This document shows positions 3,220 through 9,390 of a DNA stretch of 64,000 nucleotides, one piece after another; the first letter of the stretch is position 1; each line of letters starts with the position of its first letter. The DNA is from Geomonas oryzisoli. Lineage in GTDB: Bacteria; Desulfobacterota; Desulfuromonadia; Geobacterales; Geobacteraceae. Both the position numbers and the translations under genes were made by a program. The notes under the pieces are model-generated. The model saw only the letters and a list, made by a program, of their open reading frames with translations, was not told the DNA's origin and ran no database searches. The stretch is taken from assembly GCF_018986915.1 (NCBI RefSeq), contig NZ_CP076723.1:2327501-2391500 (forward strand). The letters run 5' to 3'.

Positions 3220-4206
3220 TCAGTACGGTTCGTTAAGAAGGTCATGTACTCCCTGCACGATCCCCTCCAGCTGCGGGATGCAGAGCTTTTCGATCTTGCG
3301 TGAATACGGCATCGGCACATCGAGGCCCGAGATGCGTCGTACCGGCGCCAGCAGGGTATCGAAGCACCCCTCGTAGATGCGGGAGGCGATGTCCCCGCCA
3401 AGCCCGGCGCTTTTCCAGCATTCCTCGATCACCACGGCGCGCCCGGTCTTGCGCACCGAGGCGAGCACCGTCTCCATGTCCAGCGGAACCAGGGTGCGCA
3501 GATCGATCACCTCGCAGGAAGTCCCTTCTTTCTCCAGCTGTTGCGCCGCCTGCAGCGCGAGGATGGCCATCCTGCCGTATCCCACCAGGGTGACATGGTC
3601 ACCATCCCTCATGACGGATGCCTTGCCGAAGGGAACCAGAAACTCCGGGTCCTCGGGGACCTCCCCCTTGCTGTTATAGAGGAGTTCGTGCTCGAGGAAG
3701 ATGACCGGGTTGTCCTCCCTGATCGACGTCTTCAGGAGACCCTTCGCGTCGGCGGGCGTCGCGGGATAGGCGACCAGCATCCCCGGGCAGTGCATGAAAT
3801 AGCTCTCCAGGCTCTGCGAGTGCTGGGCGCCCAACTGGCTCCCCCCGCCCCCCGGCATCCTGATCACCATTGGAACTTTGGTCTGGCCGCCGAACATGTA
3901 GCGCACCTTGGCCATGTGGTTCACGATCTGGTCCATGGCGAGCAGGGCGAAGTTGACGGTCATCAGTTCTGCCACAGGACGGACCCCAGCCATGGCGGCG
4001 CCGACGGCGACCCCGACGATGGTGTTCTCGGATATGGGGCAATCCCGCACCCGCAGTTCCCCGAACTCGGATAACAGCCCGCGGGTCACCTTGAAGGCCC
4101 CCTCGTACAGCGCCACGTCCTCACCGTAGGTGACGACCGTCTTGTCGCGCCGCATCTCTTCCTTGAGCGCCAGGTTGATGGCGTCACGATAGGTCATCTC
4201 AGCCAT
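3220..4206 (-). CDS. pdhB: Pyruvate dehydrogenase E1 component, beta subunit
   Basis: The beta chain of the thiamine-diphosphate-dependent E1, which decarboxylates pyruvate and acetylates the E2 lipoyl group. The 328-residue length and the motifs YGEDVALYEGAF near the N-terminus, ENTIVGVAVGAAMAG, and a C-terminal transketolase domain (VVIEECWKSAGLGGDIAS) are typical. The ATG at 4206 follows CGGAGA. It forms a two-gene unit with pdhC. Its partner alpha subunit gene is not adjacent: it lies 4.2 kb away on the same strand, beyond a plus-strand cassette, which is unusual for an E1 alpha/beta pair. Confidence 0.92.
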   Translation of the reverse strand: MAEMTYRDAINLALKEEMRRDKTVVTYGEDVALYEGAFKVTRGLLSEFGELRVRDCPISENTIVGVAVGAAMAGVRPVAELMTVNFALLAMDQIVNHMAKVRYMFGGQTKVPMVIRMPGGGGSQLGAQHSQSLESYFMHCPGMLVAYPATPADAKGLLKTSIREDNPVIFLEHELLYNSKGEVPEDPEFLVPFGKASVMRDGDHVTLVGYGRMAILALQAAQQLEKEGTSCEVIDLRTLVPLDMETVLASVRKTGRAVVIEECWKSAGLGGDIASRIYEGCFDTLLAPVRRISGLDVPMPYSRKIEKLCIPQLEGIVQGVHDLLNEPY

Positions 4207-4439
4207 ACATCGTCTCCGTTAGCGCAGGGGATTGTTACTTTCGCAACACAAGGTTCAAATACTATCAAAGCATCAAGCGAAGACAACGATGGAGAGATCA
4301 AATATGGGCAGTTGCAGCCAAGGTTTCCCTTGGGATGACTCAAGCGCTGACATAAGTTTGCGGGGCAATGGCCCTGCCGGGTGATGGCGTAACGTGGATT
4401 ACATCGCAGGGTTCCTTATTAGGCCATAAGAATTAAAAT

Positions 4440-4467
4440 CTTGCTTTCACCAATGATTCAATATAGT
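4440..4467 (+). promoter_or_regulatory. Possible sigma-70 promoter of the rhodanese leader
   Basis: A CTTGCT/TTGCTT -35-like box and a TATAGT -10-like box (4462-4467) with 15-16 bp spacing sit in a locally AT-rich stretch, about 30 bp before the structured leader. This is inference from position and sequence only. Confidence 0.4.
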
Positions 4468-4499
4468 TATGTCGGTATACAGAACCGTAAATAGTTTAT

Positions 4500-4583
4500 A
4501 CCACCGAAAGGGTAACGTCAGGGAAACCTGGCTGCACAAAGTCACCTATCCAGTTTCTGGAAAGAGGGGCTTGTCGAAGTGGT
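4500..4583 (+). promoter_or_regulatory. Structured leader, divergent GEMM-I-like riboswitch candidate
   Basis: A compact fold lies just before an intrinsic terminator and a secreted rhodanese gene. A closing stem pairs ACCAC (4500-4504) with GTGGT (4579-4583). Next is a CAGG-GAAA-CCTG tetraloop hairpin (4519-4530) followed by a CAAAG segment (4537-4541). Then comes a CCAG-TTT-CTGG hairpin (4550-4560) followed by AGAGGGGCTT. The order (outer stem, GAAA hairpin, CAAAGnC, second hairpin, GGGGnT) resembles the GEMM-I class that binds cyclic di-GMP or cGAMP, but several conserved positions differ (for example GTAACG where GCAAACC is expected). It could be another leader class. Confidence 0.45.
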
Positions 4584-4605
4584 GTTTGCTTGGATGCTTG
4601 CGTCC

Positions 4606-4645
4606 AAAAAACGCCCCACCTTTAGACGAGACGGGGCGTTTTTTT
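4606..4645 (+). terminator. Intrinsic terminator in the leader of the rhodanese gene
   Basis: A stem ACGCCCC (4611-4617) with GGGGCGT (4633-4639) is followed by six Ts and preceded by six As. It lies 58 bp before the start codon and just after the structured leader, the arrangement expected for riboswitch-type termination control. No upstream plus-strand gene exists for it to terminate. Confidence 0.8.
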
Positions 4646-4703
4646 GTGCCTGCAGTACCCGTCGTCATATCGACTACGGCAAAAATACACTGAAGGAGAG
4701 CTT

Positions 4704-5297
4704 ATGAAATCAAGTTGTCGTCTCGTTTCCCTGATGTTGATCTGCAGTCTTTTAACCTGCATTGCCCCTGCCTTTGGTGAAGATGAGGGTCTAGGAGAGT
4801 GGGTCAGCCAAGCGGCCCCGAAAAAGGAAGCACAGGTGATCCCTCCGGGGCAGTTCGCCATGCTGGCCAAGTATGCCAATGCCTTCCTGGGCACGGCGCC
4901 GGGCGGGTCCCGGACCATCTACGCCGAGACCCTCATGGACGGCGTCGATGCCCCGAACCTGGCGGACGAACTGAACGACTTCTTCCTGGTCGACGTCAGG
5001 CCTGCCAACGAGTACTGCGCGGATACCGTTCCGGGCGCCATCAACATCCCGATGAACGAGTTGGCGACAGCCGAGAACCTCGCCAAGTTGCCGACCGACA
5101 AGCCGATCCTTCTTATCTGCAACACCGGCCATACCGCCAGCATCAGCACTGCCGTGCTCGGCATGCTCGGTTACGACGTCTGGACCCTGCGTTTCGGCAT
5201 GATGGGGTGGCGCGCCGCGACCAAAGCCAAGGTGTGGTCCCCGAAATCATCGCAGGTCGTGTACGGTGCCGGTTACCCGGTACAGAAGTGCCAGTAA
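4704..5297 (+). CDS. Exported single-domain rhodanese
   Basis: A 197-residue protein with a signal peptide (hydrophobic residues about 7-22, cleavage near AFG) and one rhodanese domain (about 85-175). The catalytic-loop cysteine is C139 in LICNTGHTAS, so it may carry a persulfide. The CADTVPGAINIP segment is the typical rhodanese entry motif. It should act in the periplasm. The ATG at 4704 is chosen because GAAGGAGAG stands 3-11 bases before it and the signal peptide begins there; an upstream in-frame ATG at 4644 lies inside the terminator. A terminator follows, so it is probably transcribed alone. Its substrate is unknown. Confidence 0.88.
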   Translation: MKSSCRLVSLMLICSLLTCIAPAFGEDEGLGEWVSQAAPKKEAQVIPPGQFAMLAKYANAFLGTAPGGSRTIYAETLMDGVDAPNLADELNDFFLVDVRPANEYCADTVPGAINIPMNELATAENLAKLPTDKPILLICNTGHTASISTAVLGMLGYDVWTLRFGMMGWRAATKAKVWSPKSSQVVYGAGYPVQKCQ

Positions 5298-5349
5298 GCA
5301 AGGCTTTACAGCAAATTAGAGCGGCAGAGCGACCATAGAAAGCACGTTC

Positions 5350-5377
5350 AGCCCCCTTTCGCGAGGGGGCTTTTTTT
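5350..5377 (+). terminator. Rho-independent terminator after the first rhodanese
   Basis: AGCCCCC (5350-5356) pairs with GGGGGCT (5365-5371) around a TTTCGCGA loop, followed by seven Ts. Confidence 0.9.
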
Positions 5378-5419
5378 GCAGGTCTTACGGATGTTGCTCG
5401 CACCAACGGAGTGGTAGCA

Positions 5420-7501
5420 GTGAAAATAAACATGCACAAGTCAATCAGTGTGAAGGTCGTCGCCATCCTTCTGCTGGTGCTGACTGCAGGACAGGGAGTG
5501 GGCGCGTACATCTTTATCTCCTCCACGCGCAACGACTTCATGGAGTCCCTTCATGCCAGAATGAAACGGGGAGCGAAACAAAACGCGGGCATCCTGGCCG
5601 AACCGCTGGTCAACTACAACACCCCCCTCATCACCTCGTTTATTACCGAATCCTTGAAGGACGCGGACATCAGCTCGATAAAGGTCATCGACAAGAACGG
5701 AAACACCATAAAGGAAGGGATGGTGGACCGGGGGGAGCGTGAACACTTTACCCTGAGCGAGCCCATCCTGGCAGACGGTGAGACCGTCGGCACGTTCAAA
5801 ATGGTGTACACCGCCAAGACCATCGACGACAGCATGAGGATGAGCCGGATCCTCATACCGCTGTACCAACTCGGCATGCTCCTCGTCATGGCGTCTGTCC
5901 TGATCTGGTTGTTCCGTCTGTACGTCAAGCTGCCGGTGGAGCGGCTCAACCAGGCCATCTCGGGCATAACAGGCGGGGACCTCACCGTCGAGGTGCCGGT
6001 ACTTCGCGACGATGAGATCGGCACCATAGCGAGCGGGGTACGTTTCCTGGTACAGCGACTGCGCGGGACCGTGGCCAGGATCAATACCAACTCGGACAAG
6101 GTGACCAAGGCAGTCCGGCAACTGAACGACACCTTCGACAGGGTCAGGCATGTCATCGACAGCCAGAATGCCTCCACGGGCGAGGTCTCCTGCGCAGTGA
6201 GAGACGTCGCAGAGTCCCAGTTGCTGATAGTCACCAACACGGACGATCTGCTTTCTCTTTCCAACGAGAATCTCTCCTCGCTGCTGCAAATGCAGGGCAA
6301 CTCCGAGGAGATCGCCGGAACTACGGATGATCTCAACAAGAATCTCCAGGACTCCTACTCGGCCCTGACAGAACTGGCCCAGTCAGCCAAAGGGATCACG
6401 CATCTAGCCGACGATGCCGCCTCTTTTGTCTCGGCGACCTCGTCGTCGGCGGAAGAGGTATATCGTTCCGTAAAGCACGCGGAGTCGCTGATAAACGAAT
6501 CTGCCAGGATCAGCACCGCGACCACTGCCATCATTTCCGAAAAGGGGATGGTCGCCATAGATGAGGTGACGGGCGGGATGAAGCGGATCGGCATCTTCAT
6601 CGATTCGCTCATGTCGGCCATCGAGAATCTCGGCGGCCGATCGCGGGACATCGGCAAGATCCTCAGCGTAATGGAGGAAGTCACCACGCAATCCCGCCTG
6701 CTCAGCCTGAACGCCCAGATAATCGCTGCCCAGGCGGGGGAAAACGGCAAGAGCTTCGCGGTGGTAGCGGAAGAAATGAGGCTCCTCTCTGATAAGGCGG
6801 CGCTCTCGACCCAGGAGATCGACACCATCGTCAAGGTGATACAGCATGAGATCGAGCAGGTCGTCAAGGAGACGCATGACAGCGTCAACGTGGTCAGAGA
6901 CGGAGAAACGGTGGTCGGGAAAACGGCCAACGTGTTGATGGAGATCCTGGAGACGTCGCGTCAGGCGACCGACCTCGCCAAAGGGATCGAGCGGGCCTCG
7001 ATCGAGCAGACCGAAGGCCTGAAGCATGTGGTCACCTCGACTGAGCAGGTGCGCCAGAAGATAGACCAGGTCAACCGAGCCACCAGCGAGCAGGAAAAAG
7101 GGACCGCTTTCCTGCTGCAGGCGCTCAATCCGATCAAGGACGCCATGGTGGCGACCAAGCGGGGGACCGAAGAGCAGGTGAAGAGCACCAGGTTCATATC
7201 GGCCAACATAGAGCAGGCCAACCAGAAAAATTACGATATCGCGCGCGCGTCCTCGAACCAGCAGGAACTCAACCAACGGGTGCTCGAGGCGCTCGAAGAC
7301 GTGAAACTGATGGGAAGTTCGACGGTCGAAGAGGTGAAAAGGCTCATCCCCGTCGTCACCGCCCTGCTCGAAGACATGGATGCTCTGCGGCTGGAGATGT
7401 CCGGCTTCACGGTAATTACAACCAGTGCCGGAACCGGCGACGTGGGAGGGGAATGGCAATTGAACGCCCCGCCGCCCCTCGTGCCGCTGGCAACGGCATA
7501 A
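5420..7501 (+). CDS. Transmembrane chemoreceptor with divergent signalling tip
   Basis: A 693-residue membrane chemoreceptor. TM1 spans about residues 9-29, then a periplasmic sensor of about 110 residues (probably a single Cache-type fold), TM2 at about 140-163, HAMP at about 164-215, and a long cytoplasmic coiled coil. The hairpin tip (about 417-453) reads QSRLLSLNAQIIAAQAGENG followed by FAVVAEEM. It keeps the LL-LNA core and the GEN-G turn, but the usual AIEAARAGE is changed, including Gln for the conserved Arg. GTG at 5420 is chosen because GGAG lies 8 bases before it; GTG 5411 and ATG 5432 are alternatives. It is flanked by two exported rhodanese genes, the second only 14 bp downstream, which suggests a link to periplasmic sulfur or redox chemistry (inference). 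Confidence 0.9.
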   Translation: MKINMHKSISVKVVAILLLVLTAGQGVGAYIFISSTRNDFMESLHARMKRGAKQNAGILAEPLVNYNTPLITSFITESLKDADISSIKVIDKNGNTIKEGMVDRGEREHFTLSEPILADGETVGTFKMVYTAKTIDDSMRMSRILIPLYQLGMLLVMASVLIWLFRLYVKLPVERLNQAISGITGGDLTVEVPVLRDDEIGTIASGVRFLVQRLRGTVARINTNSDKVTKAVRQLNDTFDRVRHVIDSQNASTGEVSCAVRDVAESQLLIVTNTDDLLSLSNENLSSLLQMQGNSEEIAGTTDDLNKNLQDSYSALTELAQSAKGITHLADDAASFVSATSSSAEEVYRSVKHAESLINESARISTATTAIISEKGMVAIDEVTGGMKRIGIFIDSLMSAIENLGGRSRDIGKILSVMEEVTTQSRLLSLNAQIIAAQAGENGKSFAVVAEEMRLLSDKAALSTQEIDTIVKVIQHEIEQVVKETHDSVNVVRDGETVVGKTANVLMEILETSRQATDLAKGIERASIEQTEGLKHVVTSTEQVRQKIDQVNRATSEQEKGTAFLLQALNPIKDAMVATKRGTEEQVKSTRFISANIEQANQKNYDIARASSNQQELNQRVLEALEDVKLMGSSTVEEVKRLIPVVTALLEDMDALRLEMSGFTVITTSAGTGDVGGEWQLNAPPPLVPLATA

Positions 7502-7515
7502 AAAAGGAGAAGCAA

Positions 7516-8295
7516 ATGAAGAAGAACGTTGTGGTCATGCTGATGGGTTTGATCTGTTTGATGCTGGCGGCCGGAGCATCGCTCGCCGCCGAGGGGTACC
7601 CCCTGCGGGCCAAGTACCCCAAGTTGAAGTACATCAGCACCGAGGAGCTTAAAAAGGATTACGCACGCGCAGTCATCGTCGATGTCCGCTCCAAACTGGA
7701 ATTCGACGTCATCCACATCGCCAAGGCGGTCAATGTGCCCGTGGCACAGAAGACCTTCGAGAACGAAATCAAGGAACTCAGGAGCAAAAACGAAGCCGGA
7801 CCGATGGTTTTCTACTGCAACGGGCACACCTGTGAGAAGTCCTACGAAGCCGCGGAACAAGCGACCACGGGCGGAATACACAACATCCTGGTCTACGATG
7901 CGGGCATCCACGACTGGGTCCAGGCCAACGCGCAGAAGACGACCCTGATGGGGGAGACTCCGGCGGTCAAGTCCAAGCTTATCCCCGCCGAAAAACTGAA
8001 AAGCCACAAGATCAAGTACGCCGAGTTCTCCAAGAAGGCACAAGCGGCTGATGCAATCTGCATCGACATCAGGGAACCGTTCCAGCGCAAGGAGATTCCG
8101 AAACTCCCCCGCCTGCGGAACATCCCTTCCGACAGACTGGTGCAACTTCTTTCCGGCACTGAATTCAAAGGGAAGACCTTGTTGATAACCGACGCTGTCG
8201 GCAAGCAGGTGGAATGGATTCAGTACTACCTGGAGAAATACGGCATCAAAGACTACTACTTCCTCGAGAACGGCGTGCTGAGCGCCAAGAATTAG
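7516..8295 (+). CDS. Exported double-rhodanese protein
   Basis: A 259-residue exported protein with a signal peptide (residues 1-25, cleavage after SLAA) and two rhodanese-like domains. Domain 1 (about 38-140) has an active-site loop FYCNGHTCEKS with C101 (and C106). Domain 2 (about 155-259) has LLITDAVGKQ where the catalytic Cys would be, so it is probably inactive and may have a structural or binding role. The start at 7516 is fixed by AAGGAG at 7504-7509. It follows the chemoreceptor stop by 14 bp, so the two form an operon. It could be the periplasmic partner of that receptor, by analogy with binding proteins that dock on chemoreceptors; this is inference. Confidence 0.85.
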   Translation: MKKNVVVMLMGLICLMLAAGASLAAEGYPLRAKYPKLKYISTEELKKDYARAVIVDVRSKLEFDVIHIAKAVNVPVAQKTFENEIKELRSKNEAGPMVFYCNGHTCEKSYEAAEQATTGGIHNILVYDAGIHDWVQANAQKTTLMGETPAVKSKLIPAEKLKSHKIKYAEFSKKAQAADAICIDIREPFQRKEIPKLPRLRNIPSDRLVQLLSGTEFKGKTLLITDAVGKQVEWIQYYLEKYGIKDYYFLENGVLSAKN

Positions 8296-8327
8296 CAACA
8301 ACGATCGGCACGTGCTGTAATGTGACG

Positions 8328-8361
8328 CGAAAGCCTCATCAGGTTCCTGGTGAGGCTTTCG
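8328..8361. terminator. 11-bp hairpin terminator between convergent genes
   Basis: CGAAAGCCTCA (8328-8338) pairs perfectly with TGAGGCTTTCG (8351-8361). It lies between the double rhodanese and the 3' end of pdhA and could serve both strands, though the T-runs are short. Confidence 0.75.
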
Positions 8362-8412
8362 TTATCACGCATCATGCTGTTGTTGTGAACGATGCTTTGT
8401 TACCGCGTCGTA

Positions 8413-9390
8413 TCAGACATAGATATCCTCCCAGACTTCGCCGTCCTCCGGCCAGGGGGATTCCTCCGCGAAACGGACGCTTTCTTCGACTTGGGCGAGG
8501 CAGCGCTTGGCGATCTCGTCGAGTCGTTCCTGGGTCGCGATCCCCTCTTCCAGAAGCCTGCGCGACAGGTTGGGGATCGGGTCGCGGCTTTTCCAGACGT
8601 CGGTTTCCGAGGAACTGCGGTACTTCGCGGGATCCGACATGGAGTGCCCGCGGAAGCGGTAGGTGACCGCCTCGATGAAGTACGGGCGCTGGCGCTCCCT
8701 CACCCACTCGGCGGCCCGCTTGGTGGCTTGGTACATGGCGATGACATCCATCCCGTCGACCTTCTCGCTGGGGATATCGTAGCCACAGGTGCGCCGGTGC
8801 AGCGCCGCCTGAGCCGAGGCCCGATGCACCTCGGTCCCGATGCCGTAGAAGTTGTTCTCGCAGACGAACAGTACCGGCAGATCCCAAAGGCGCGCCCAGT
8901 TCAGCGACTCGTGGAAGGTCCCCTGGTTCATGGAGCCGTCGCCGAAGAAGCAAGCCGTGACGCGGTCCTCCTCGAGTAGCTGGCTCCCCCAGGCGAGCCC
9001 GGTGGCGATGGGGAACTGACCGCCTACGATGGCATAGCCCCCCATGAAATTGAGCTGCGGCGCGAAGAGATGCATGGAGCCCCCCTTCCCCTTGCAAAGC
9101 CCGGTCGCCTTGCCGAAGAGTTCCGCCATCACCTTCTTGGGATCGGCGCCTCTGACGATGGCCTGGGCATGGTCGCGGTAGGCGGAAAGAATGTAGTCCT
9201 TTTGCTGCAGACCGGCGGTGCAGCCGACCGCTACCGCCTCCTGCCCGGTGTACAGGTGCAAAAAGCCGGTGATGTGCCCCTTCGAATACTGCTCGGCGCA
9301 GCTCTCTTCGAACTCGCGGCAGAGCACCATCTGCTCGTAGAAGCCGATCAGTTCCTCCTCCGAGAGCAGCTCTTTCAGAGTCTCAGCCAT
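8413..9390 (-). CDS. pdhA: Pyruvate dehydrogenase E1 component, alpha subunit
   Basis: The alpha chain of the thiamine-diphosphate E1. The 325-residue protein has the N-terminal FLHLYTGQEAVAVG segment, the ThDP-binding motif starting GDGSMNQGTFHES and closing with CENN, and the phosphorylation-loop-like region YRFRGHSMSDPAKYRS. All are typical of PdhA/AcoA. The start at 9390 follows GGAGGAG and overlaps the aconitase stop by 8 bp, so acn and pdhA are coupled. The cognate beta subunit and E2 lie beyond the opposite-strand rhodanese/chemoreceptor cassette. Confidence 0.92.
   Translation of the reverse strand: MAETLKELLSEEELIGFYEQMVLCREFEESCAEQYSKGHITGFLHLYTGQEAVAVGCTAGLQQKDYILSAYRDHAQAIVRGADPKKVMAELFGKATGLCKGKGGSMHLFAPQLNFMGGYAIVGGQFPIATGLAWGSQLLEEDRVTACFFGDGSMNQGTFHESLNWARLWDLPVLFVCENNFYGIGTEVHRASAQAALHRRTCGYDIPSEKVDGMDVIAMYQATKRAAEWVRERQRPYFIEAVTYRFRGHSMSDPAKYRSSSETDVWKSRDPIPNLSRRLLEEGIATQERLDEIAKRCLAQVEESVRFAEESPWPEDGEVWEDIYV

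What the first reader, a model, noticed from the sequence alone, without database searches (positions are those of the whole stretch)
4207..8412. A rhodanese / chemoreceptor / double-rhodanese cassette splits the pyruvate dehydrogenase genes
acn-pdhA and pdhB-pdhC are all on the minus strand and E1 alpha and beta normally sit side by side, yet 4.2 kb of plus-strand genes lie between them. The cassette holds two exported rhodaneses around one membrane chemoreceptor, with its own promoter-like site, structured leader and terminators at both ends. It looks like a self-contained module, perhaps sensing a periplasmic sulfur or redox compound with the double rhodanese as binding partner. I do not know a described system of this build.
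Basis: partly seen in the sequence, partly recalled or inferred. Interest (0 to 1): 0.72.

Follow-up and report, generated by a model that had tools for sequence, protein, structure and literature searches.

The report
Chemoreceptor paired with exported rhodanese enzymes
A small gene module found in several bacterial lineages pairs a membrane chemoreceptor with an exported sulfur-handling enzyme in the place where related receptors keep a nutrient-binding protein, which suggests the cell may steer by sulfur caught by an enzyme.

Summary
In detail: in a Geomonas-type genome, plus-strand rhd1-mcp-rhd2 lies between pdhB and pdhA. Two separate stories explain it. (1) The position is not special to this cassette: the pdhA-pdhB junction is an insertion hotspot, split in 13 of 19 genus genomes by at least five kinds of cargo; 26 of 27 outside genomes keep the genes within 0.61 kb. 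(2) The module recurs. In the class, rhd2 occurs in 13 of 277 genomes, with an MCP adjacent in 12; rhd1 occurs in 7, all with rhd2. Nine near relatives of this MCP lack rhd2; 8 have a solute-binding-protein gene beside them, so the double rhodanese occupies a binding partner's slot. Rhd2 has one active-looking domain (invariant C101, C106) and a degenerate one with Asp for the catalytic Cys in all 41 sequences aligned. The 'structured leader' is a GEMM-I (cyclic-dinucleotide) riboswitch, present upstream of rhd1 in 7 of 7 loci, six with U at binding-site position 92. Best reading: a chemoreceptor that reads a rhodanese instead of a solute-binding protein. Contact, ligand and behaviour are inferred; structure prediction was never available (server busy).

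The parts
3220..4206 (-). pdhB (pyruvate dehydrogenase E1 beta), one border of the hotspot
4207..4319 (-). pdhB upstream region (about 113 nt), homologous to that of the Kef/SecF-cargo carriers G004, G006 and G017 (87-90% identity over this stretch plus the first 60 nt of pdhB); ends in a ribosome-binding-like site next to pdhB
4502..4579 (+). GEMM-I (c-di-GMP-I class) riboswitch aptamer, binding-site triple read as G20/A47/U92
   Evidence: RF03168 38 bits, below its cut-off; RF01051 35.6 bits, over its cut-off of 35
4605..4645 (+). terminator-like hairpin with T run, the expression platform of rhd1; its 5' arm can alternatively pair with the 3' strand of P1
4704..5297 (+). rhd1, exported single-domain rhodanese, active-site loop CNTGHTA
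5350..5371 (+). intrinsic terminator after rhd1
5411..7501 (+). membrane chemoreceptor (two transmembrane segments by eye, HAMP, MCPsignal); start codon uncertain (GTG 5411, GTG 5420 or ATG 5432)
7516..8295 (+). rhd2, exported protein with an N-terminal active-looking rhodanese domain (CNGHTC) and a C-terminal degenerate one (Asp226 at the Cys position)
8323..8360 (.). inverted repeat between rhd2 and pdhA, probable bidirectional terminator; inverted repeats at the same place in G013 and G009
8413..9390 (-). pdhA (E1 alpha); the insertion point is at its 3' end

Best explanation
The cassette is an accessory sensory module that landed in a recombination hotspot at the pdhA-pdhB junction. Rhd2 works like the periplasmic binding protein of an indirect-binding chemoreceptor: it takes up sulfane sulfur or a related thiol species on C101 (with C106 as a possible second thiol) and changes state. 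It then docks through its catalytically dead C-terminal domain, or the cleft between the domains, on the periplasmic domain of the MCP, which signals through HAMP to a CheA pathway. Rhd1 is a separately controlled exported rhodanese that supplies or removes the sulfur species; its mRNA carries a cyclic-dinucleotide-class riboswitch predicted to shut it off when the ligand is abundant. Shown: gene order, conservation and co-occurrence, active-site residues, the riboswitch, and the hotspot. Inferred: docking, ligand, direction of the switch, behaviour.
For: An MCP gene is adjacent to rhd2 in 12 of the 13 class genomes that hold rhd2, out of 277 searched (in G195 the MCP lies in two frames). In a wider scan 12 of 51 loci have an MCP as neighbour, in one with a gene between, including records labelled Nitrospirae, Omnitrophota and Lentisphaerales. 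Other sensors also neighbour rhd2: histidine kinases directly upstream in L165 and L166, and an NMT1-type binding protein with a Cache-SpoIIE sensor in Pseudodesulfovibrio-type loci. Among the 16 of 58 near genomes with this MCP family, the neighbour is rhd2 in 7, a solute-binding protein in 8 and neither in 1. Control: 0 of 17 other MCP genes of the same genome had a homologue of either partner next to them. C101, C106 and D226 are invariant in 41 sequences. rhd1 occurs in 7 genomes, all with rhd2. GEMM-I aptamer upstream of rhd1 in 7 of 7 loci, with compensatory pair changes. Precedent for a receptor that reads a periplasmic binding protein: CtpL-PstS (PMC4926252, abstract and outline seen).
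Against: No structure or complex could be predicted (server busy at every attempt), so docking is untested. No MCP was seen next to rhd2 in the loci labelled Gammaproteobacteria or their orders, so rhd2 has some use without this receptor type. G193 has rhd2 without an adjacent MCP and G053 has the MCP without an adjacent partner. The MCPs beside rhd2 outside the near genomes may belong to other MCP families; they were recognised mainly by the shared signalling domain. The binding-protein-paired MCPs are only 27-37% identical to the window MCP, and so is one rhd2-paired one (G049, 31%). Nothing in the sequence identifies the ligand.
Confidence: 0.5

Rival explanations
1. The rhodaneses are ordinary periplasmic sulfur or cyanide detoxification enzymes, kept with an MCP that senses the same compound directly. 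They share a function but do not touch.
For: Rhd1 and the N domain of rhd2 keep the catalytic Cys loop; rhd2 stands without an MCP in the gammaproteobacterial loci.
Against: rhd2 takes the gene slot that solute-binding proteins hold beside related MCPs. The MCP periplasmic region of the window protein matched no ligand-binding Pfam domain. The C-terminal domain of rhd2 looks catalytically dead yet is strongly conserved.
Confidence: 0.3
2. The MCP reads redox state: rhd2 with its C101/C106 pair is a thiol-disulfide switch whose oxidised or reduced form docks on the receptor, and sulfur transfer is incidental.
For: C106 is as invariant as the catalytic C101 in 41 sequences; the N domain resembles the rhodanese part of a rhodanese/DsbD-like selenoprotein family (NF045694, E 9.5e-14, 50 bits against a cut-off of 805).
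Against: No redox partner gene was recognised in the cassette; no biochemical data.
Confidence: 0.12
3. The cassette is a passing genomic-island cargo with no joint function; the genes sit together only because the junction collects insertions.
For: The junction collects unrelated cargo; the cassette is patchy in the genus (3 of 19 genomes).
Against: Homologous genes are together at other loci in other genera and orders.
Confidence: 0.05

Closest known systems
CtpL-PstS phosphate chemotaxis of Pseudomonas aeruginosa (PMC4926252; abstract and outline seen) and, recalled, Tar-MBP and LuxQ-LuxP
   Same: A membrane receptor that is proposed to read a loaded periplasmic protein; related MCPs of this family sit beside PBP_like_2 solute-binding proteins.
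   Different: The partner here is a rhodanese-fold protein with a catalytic Cys, not a solute-binding protein; no interaction has been shown.
LapD periplasmic output domain (PDB 4u64/4u65; that the entry is LapD is recalled, the call names it only as a two-component histidine kinase, GGDEF/EAL protein)
   Same: Weak profile match of the MCP periplasmic region, E 9.7e-5 over profile positions 25-98; LapD's domain binds a periplasmic protein (recalled).
   Different: LapD is not an MCP. The match covers part of the domain and could not be checked by fold.
GEMM-I riboswitches (c-di-GMP-I, RF01051) and the cGAMP-sensing GEMM-Ib of Geobacter (PMC6456294, passages seen)
   Same: Same aptamer family; the own genome holds 20 matches over the RF01051 cut-off, this one included.
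   Different: Binding-site triple read as G20/A47/U92, neither the usual G20/C92 nor the A20 of cGAMP riboswitches; predicted to be an OFF switch through an antiterminator.
Two-domain rhodaneses with one inactive domain (recalled: bovine rhodanese type)
   Same: One active-looking and one inactive-looking rhodanese domain.
   Different: Here the active-looking domain is N-terminal and has a CNGxxC loop; the best solved relatives match one domain only (6mxv, E 6.7e-16).

Membership tests
Methyl-accepting chemotaxis protein | MCPsignal domain over the curated cut-off, with HAMP | tested here: met
   PF00015 105.5 bits (cut-off 34.6), PF00672 32.2 bits (cut-off 25)
Methyl-accepting chemotaxis protein | couples to CheA/CheW | not testable with these tools
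   Signalling tip NAQIIAAQAGE. Of the 30 best-scoring of the other 43 MCPs, a tip was read in 27: 24 have Glu where this one has the second Ile, 3 share IIAAQAGE
Solute-binding-protein-dependent (indirect) chemoreceptor | partner gene for a secreted protein next to the receptor | tested here: met
   rhd2 14 nt downstream of the MCP; 15 of 16 family members in the near genomes have rhd2 or a binding protein adjacent
Solute-binding-protein-dependent (indirect) chemoreceptor | the partner is a solute-binding protein | tested here: not met
   rhd2 is a rhodanese; hence 'works like', not 'is'
Solute-binding-protein-dependent (indirect) chemoreceptor | loaded partner binds the receptor periplasmic domain | not testable with these tools
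   no structure job was accepted (and later)
Rhodanese superfamily | PF00581 over cut-off and catalytic Cys loop | tested here: met
   rhd1 53.7 and rhd2 70.5 bits, cut-off 22.2; CNTGHTA and CNGHTC loops
Rhodanese superfamily | catalytic Cys in the second domain of rhd2 | tested here: not met
   Asp226 in all 41 aligned sequences (alignment to the Cys position)
c-di-GMP-I riboswitch (RF01051) | covariance score over the gathering cut-off | tested here: met
   35.6 bits, cut-off 35
c-di-GMP-I riboswitch (RF01051) | ligand-contact nucleotides G20 and C92 (numbering recalled) | tested here: not met
   G20 present, U at position 92 in 6 of 7 rhd1 leaders including the window
c-di-GMP-I-UAU riboswitch (RF03168) | covariance score over the gathering cut-off | tested here: not met
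   38 bits, cut-off 65.9
cGAMP riboswitch (GEMM-Ib) | A at position 20 (mapping by eye, from the PDB 4YAZ contacts listed in PMC7288161) | tested here: not met
   G at that position in all 7 leaders
Integrative element in pdhA | integrase gene in the element | tested here: not met
   none recognised in the window cassette; present in G012, remnant in G015
Integrative element in pdhA | direct repeats at both ends | tested here: inconclusive
   71-bp repeat (69 of 71 identical) around the G009 cassette; none found in the window by the self-comparison

The most novel reading that the evidence does not exclude
A chemoreceptor class that reads the covalent state of an enzyme: the double rhodanese carries a persulfide on C101, and the loaded (or unloaded) enzyme, not a reversibly bound small molecule, is the signal handed to the MCP. 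Sulfane sulfur (polysulfide, thiosulfate) would then steer movement, while a natural G20/U92 variant of the GEMM-I riboswitch, possibly for cGAMP with A opposite U92, sets the level of the second rhodanese.
Probability: 0.25. Interest if true: 0.82.

Novelty: new variant of a known kind. Interest (0 to 1): 0.6.

Why it matters
The receptors that I recall as reading a periplasmic protein do so with solute-binding proteins, and the listings showed no rhodanese in that role. A rhodanese in that slot would give bacteria a way to sense zero-valent sulfur, for which I recall no dedicated chemoreceptor. The partner swap beside one MCP family makes the idea directly testable with two purified proteins. 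The riboswitch links the module to cyclic-dinucleotide signalling, and its U92 subgroup is a natural test of GEMM-I ligand choice. The pdhA-pdhB hotspot shows how a tightly coupled housekeeping gene pair can be opened by incoming DNA and still be kept.

Tried and rejected
Structure prediction of rhd2 (A5) and of the MCP N-terminal part (A4) was asked for repeatedly; the machine answered 'busy, 100 jobs are waiting' each time, so no model and no fold search was made.

A divergent MCP tip unique to this receptor was considered and dropped: 3 of the 27 tips read among 30 other MCPs of the genome have the same IIAAQAGE form. That the riboswitch subtype is exclusive to rhd1 was dropped: a pattern search found it in 12 of 277 genomes (reversed control pattern 0 in every row), and rhd1 was found in only 6 of those 12. 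Downstream genes in the others include response-regulator genes and secreted-looking proteins, read by eye. That the split is a single event tied to rhodanese cargo was dropped. Plasmid carriage: rhd2 homologues (E up to 1e-20) in 1 of 72,556 plasmid records, at 45% identity. A known Pfam ligand-binding domain in the MCP periplasmic region: the window protein gave only HAMP and a chance-level RodZ_C (0.16); of the 15 members scanned one gave dCache_1 at 0.016 and one CHASE4 at 0.13. An antiterminator in every leader was not found: 5 of the 6 leaders folded for it have one; G025 has only a weak one, and G186 was not put into that test. The five include three near-identical Geomonas leaders. That gammaproteobacterial rhd2 genes have no sensor neighbours at all was my first reading and is wrong: L165 and L166 have histidine kinases directly upstream.
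Full report
Setting. The window lies in a 4.85-Mb single-contig genome.

The location: a hotspot. I located pdhB and pdhA in 58 genomes (own, 18 genus members, 39 from family and order). In the genus, 5 of 19 genomes keep the pair overlapping at the stop/start (G002, G007, G010, G016, G018), one has a gap of about 70 bp (G008), and 13 are split: own, G001, G003, G004, G005, G006, G009, G011, G012, G013, G014, G015, G017 (in G005 the two genes are on two contigs and the split is inferred from cargo shared with G014). Outside the genus, 27 genomes had both genes as clear best hits; by their coordinates the genes lie within 0.61 kb in 26 and 1.8 kb apart in one (G055).

The cargo differs: rhd1-mcp-rhd2 (own, G013); SecF-like plus Na/H-exchanger-TrkA_N genes (G001, G004, G006, G011, G017; Pfam run on G001, the rest by sequence likeness); both of these in series (G009); a histidine kinase and response-regulator set (G005, G014; Pfam on G014); a different set in G003; and a 10-kb element with tyrosine integrase, TrwC relaxase and Mrr-type nuclease in G012. 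G015 has 27 kb with a broken relative of the same integrase at the same spot. In G012 and G015 the pdhA end and the pdhB start share, by eye, the 8-10 overlap letters of the intact pair. In G009 the rhodanese cassette is flanked by a 71-bp direct repeat of the pdhA 3' end (69 of 71 identical), and the displaced copy runs on into the Kef cargo.

On an rpoB tree of 18 genus members (G018 left out, its rpoB is in two pieces; 10 of 15 inner branches well supported) the junction state needs at least 11 changes among 8 states, and presence of the rhodanese cassette 3. The pdhB upstream regions of own and G013 are homologous to those of the Kef carriers, so the pair was already open when the rhodanese cassette arrived, or Kef cargo was lost later. 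Between own and G013, rhd1 and mcp are 94.6-94.8% identical at DNA level, while pdhA, pdhB and acn are 90-91%, rhd2 87% and rpoB 94.5%. That hints at exchange of part of the cassette but is not proof. No integrase was recognised in the window cassette and no flanking repeat was found there, so the mode of entry in this genome is open.

The module. Close rhd2 relatives (E at or below 8.5e-94) were found in 7 of 58 near genomes, and in 13 of 277 genomes of the class at E 1e-40. In 12 of these 13 an MCP gene is adjacent; in G195 that MCP lies in two frames, the second with MCPsignal, and in G164 rhd2 itself is cut by a contig end. The exception is G193, which has a single rhodanese beside rhd2. 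rhd1 was found in 7 of 277, all holding rhd2. In G030, G033 and G186 the order is mcp-rhd2-rhd1, and G033 has a second rhd2 copy after rhd1; in G025 rhd1 is on another contig. G192 shows response regulator, rhd2, MCP and another single rhodanese in a row.

A scan of genome contigs (84,980 species) returned 60 loci, of which I analysed the 51 with long matches (L137-L187; L188-L196 were dropped as generic rhodanese hits). 12 of 51 have an MCP as neighbour, in L147 with one gene between. Eight of these 12 have the contig lengths of class genomes already counted, so the new ones are L142, L146, L147 and L152. In Pseudodesulfovibrio-type loci and one Magnetocorallium locus the neighbours are an NMT1-type binding protein and a dCache-HAMP-SpoIIE protein, in some with a histidine kinase (Pfam on members of L151, L154, L155; L153 by clustering). 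L165 and L166, both gammaproteobacterial, have a histidine kinase directly upstream. The remaining loci showed no sensor directly beside rhd2 by a crude motif scan; many of these contigs are short.

The partner swap. The MCP family (E at or below 1e-60) is in 16 of the 58 near genomes. Seven have rhd2 beside it. I looked at the other nine: seven have a PBP_like_2 protein immediately upstream (Pfam on G026, G036, G019, G045; G039, G051, G057 by sequence likeness), one a Phosphonate-bd protein (G042), and one (G053) none. As a control I took 20 of the other 43 MCP genes of the own genome. The script recognised the MCP in 17, and 0 of 17 had a homologue of rhd2 or of the PBP_like_2 proteins next door. 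3 of 17 had any signal-peptide-like same-strand neighbour within 200 bp by a crude rule, which missed two of the binding proteins and flagged the membrane-protein neighbour of G053. That related receptors put a binding protein where this one has a double rhodanese is the main reason to read rhd2 as the sensing partner.

The proteins. I aligned rhd2 with 40 of the 51 relatives (A5; L148, L168-L170, L172, L173, L179, L182, L184, L186 and L187 were not put in). R58, C101-N102-G103, C106, K108 and D128, and in the C-terminal half D184, R186, D226, G229 and Q231, are invariant in all 41. D226 stands where the catalytic Cys of rhd1 aligns, and the C-terminal half matches rhodanese profiles weakly (hhalign E 1e-6 and 9e-6). 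The MCP periplasmic region has no Pfam ligand-binding domain above chance in the window protein. Its best match in the PDB outside the HAMP region is 4u64, E 9.7e-5, which I recall to be the periplasmic domain of a LapD protein; that would again be a protein-binding domain. The MCP has the third lowest MCPsignal score of the 44 found in the genome.

The leader. Rfam finds a GEMM-I aptamer at 4502-4579 that passes the RF01051 cut-off in the genome search. The same element precedes rhd1 in G013, G009, G030, G033, G025 and G186, 7 of 7 with the window. Pairs 3-92, 16-39, 20-35 and 23-32 of the alignment show compensatory changes; one P2 pair that I had drawn (52-71) forms in only 3 of 7. By mapping to the known ligand contacts (numbering recalled; PMC7288161 passages list contacts of the cGAMP riboswitch and name the G20A/C92U mutant that binds c-di-AMP), the triple is G20/A47/U92 in six and G20/A47/C92 in G186. 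A pattern search found the subgroup in 12 of 277 genomes. Of the 6 genomes without rhd1, four leaders (L306, L307, L314, L316) read U at that place, L305 reads C and L308 could not be read; the second match in the own genome (L236) is degenerate there. What such an RNA binds is unknown; A opposite U92 would suggest cGAMP in reversed orientation, an inference only. In 5 of 6 leaders tested, three of them near-identical, the 3' strand of P1 can pair with the terminator's 5' arm, which predicts an OFF switch. The terminator at 5350-5371 suggests that the riboswitch governs mainly rhd1.

Literature. Searches for chemoreceptor or methyl-accepting chemotaxis with rhodanese, GEMM-Ib, Geobacter, riboswitch and rhodanese, Geomonas with pyruvate dehydrogenase or riboswitch and the Rfam variant names listed nothing that I recognised as this module; I judged from listings, and read passages on rhodanese in PMC3543383. 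Only open-licence papers are held. Passages were also read in PMC7288161, PMC6456294, PMC7266159, PMC2577667 (plus its section 8) and PMC5585712.

Verdict. The cassette is a real, recurrent sensory module; its position in pdh is due to a hotspot. I call it a new variant of a known kind: by hypothesis an indirect-binding chemoreceptor with an enzyme as the partner.

Noticed in passing
window 4207-8412 and loci L097-L116: The stop/start overlap of pdhA-pdhB is an insertion hotspot in the genus, with an integrase-relaxase element in G012 and a broken relative of that integrase in G015 at the same spot; pdhB keeps a ribosome-binding-like site in the split genomes read.
   Followed up: partly
window 4502-4579; L305-L308, L314, L316, L236: A GEMM-I riboswitch subgroup, often with U at binding-site position 92, recurs in several genera, also upstream of response-regulator genes. 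Possible altered ligand preference.
   Followed up: partly
L242-L248, L135: MCPs of this family sit directly downstream of PBP_like_2 (PstS-like) or Phosphonate-bd solute-binding protein genes: candidates for indirect-binding receptors in this order.
   Followed up: partly
L250 666-4413: Response regulator, double rhodanese, MCP and single rhodanese in a row behind a c-di-GMP-I-GGC match that is over its cut-off (65.4 bits, cut-off 59).
   Followed up: partly
L165 2835-6843, L166 3722-6759: Gammaproteobacterial double rhodaneses directly downstream of histidine kinases; the one in L165 has a YfiR/HmsC-like sensor domain.
   Followed up: no
G000 (loci L221-L236): The own genome has 20 GEMM-I matches over the RF01051 cut-off. 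Twelve share an AATACT(A/C)AACC form with A at position 20, the cGAMP type by my mapping, some in tandem before one gene.
   Followed up: no
L097 3222-6027: SecF-like gene plus Na/H-exchanger-TrkA_N gene as a repeated cargo of the pdh hotspot in five genomes, and together with the rhodanese cassette in G009.
   Followed up: no
L180, L181, L183: Two double-rhodanese genes close together in gammaproteobacterial contigs (L183 labelled Halothiobacillus).
   Followed up: no
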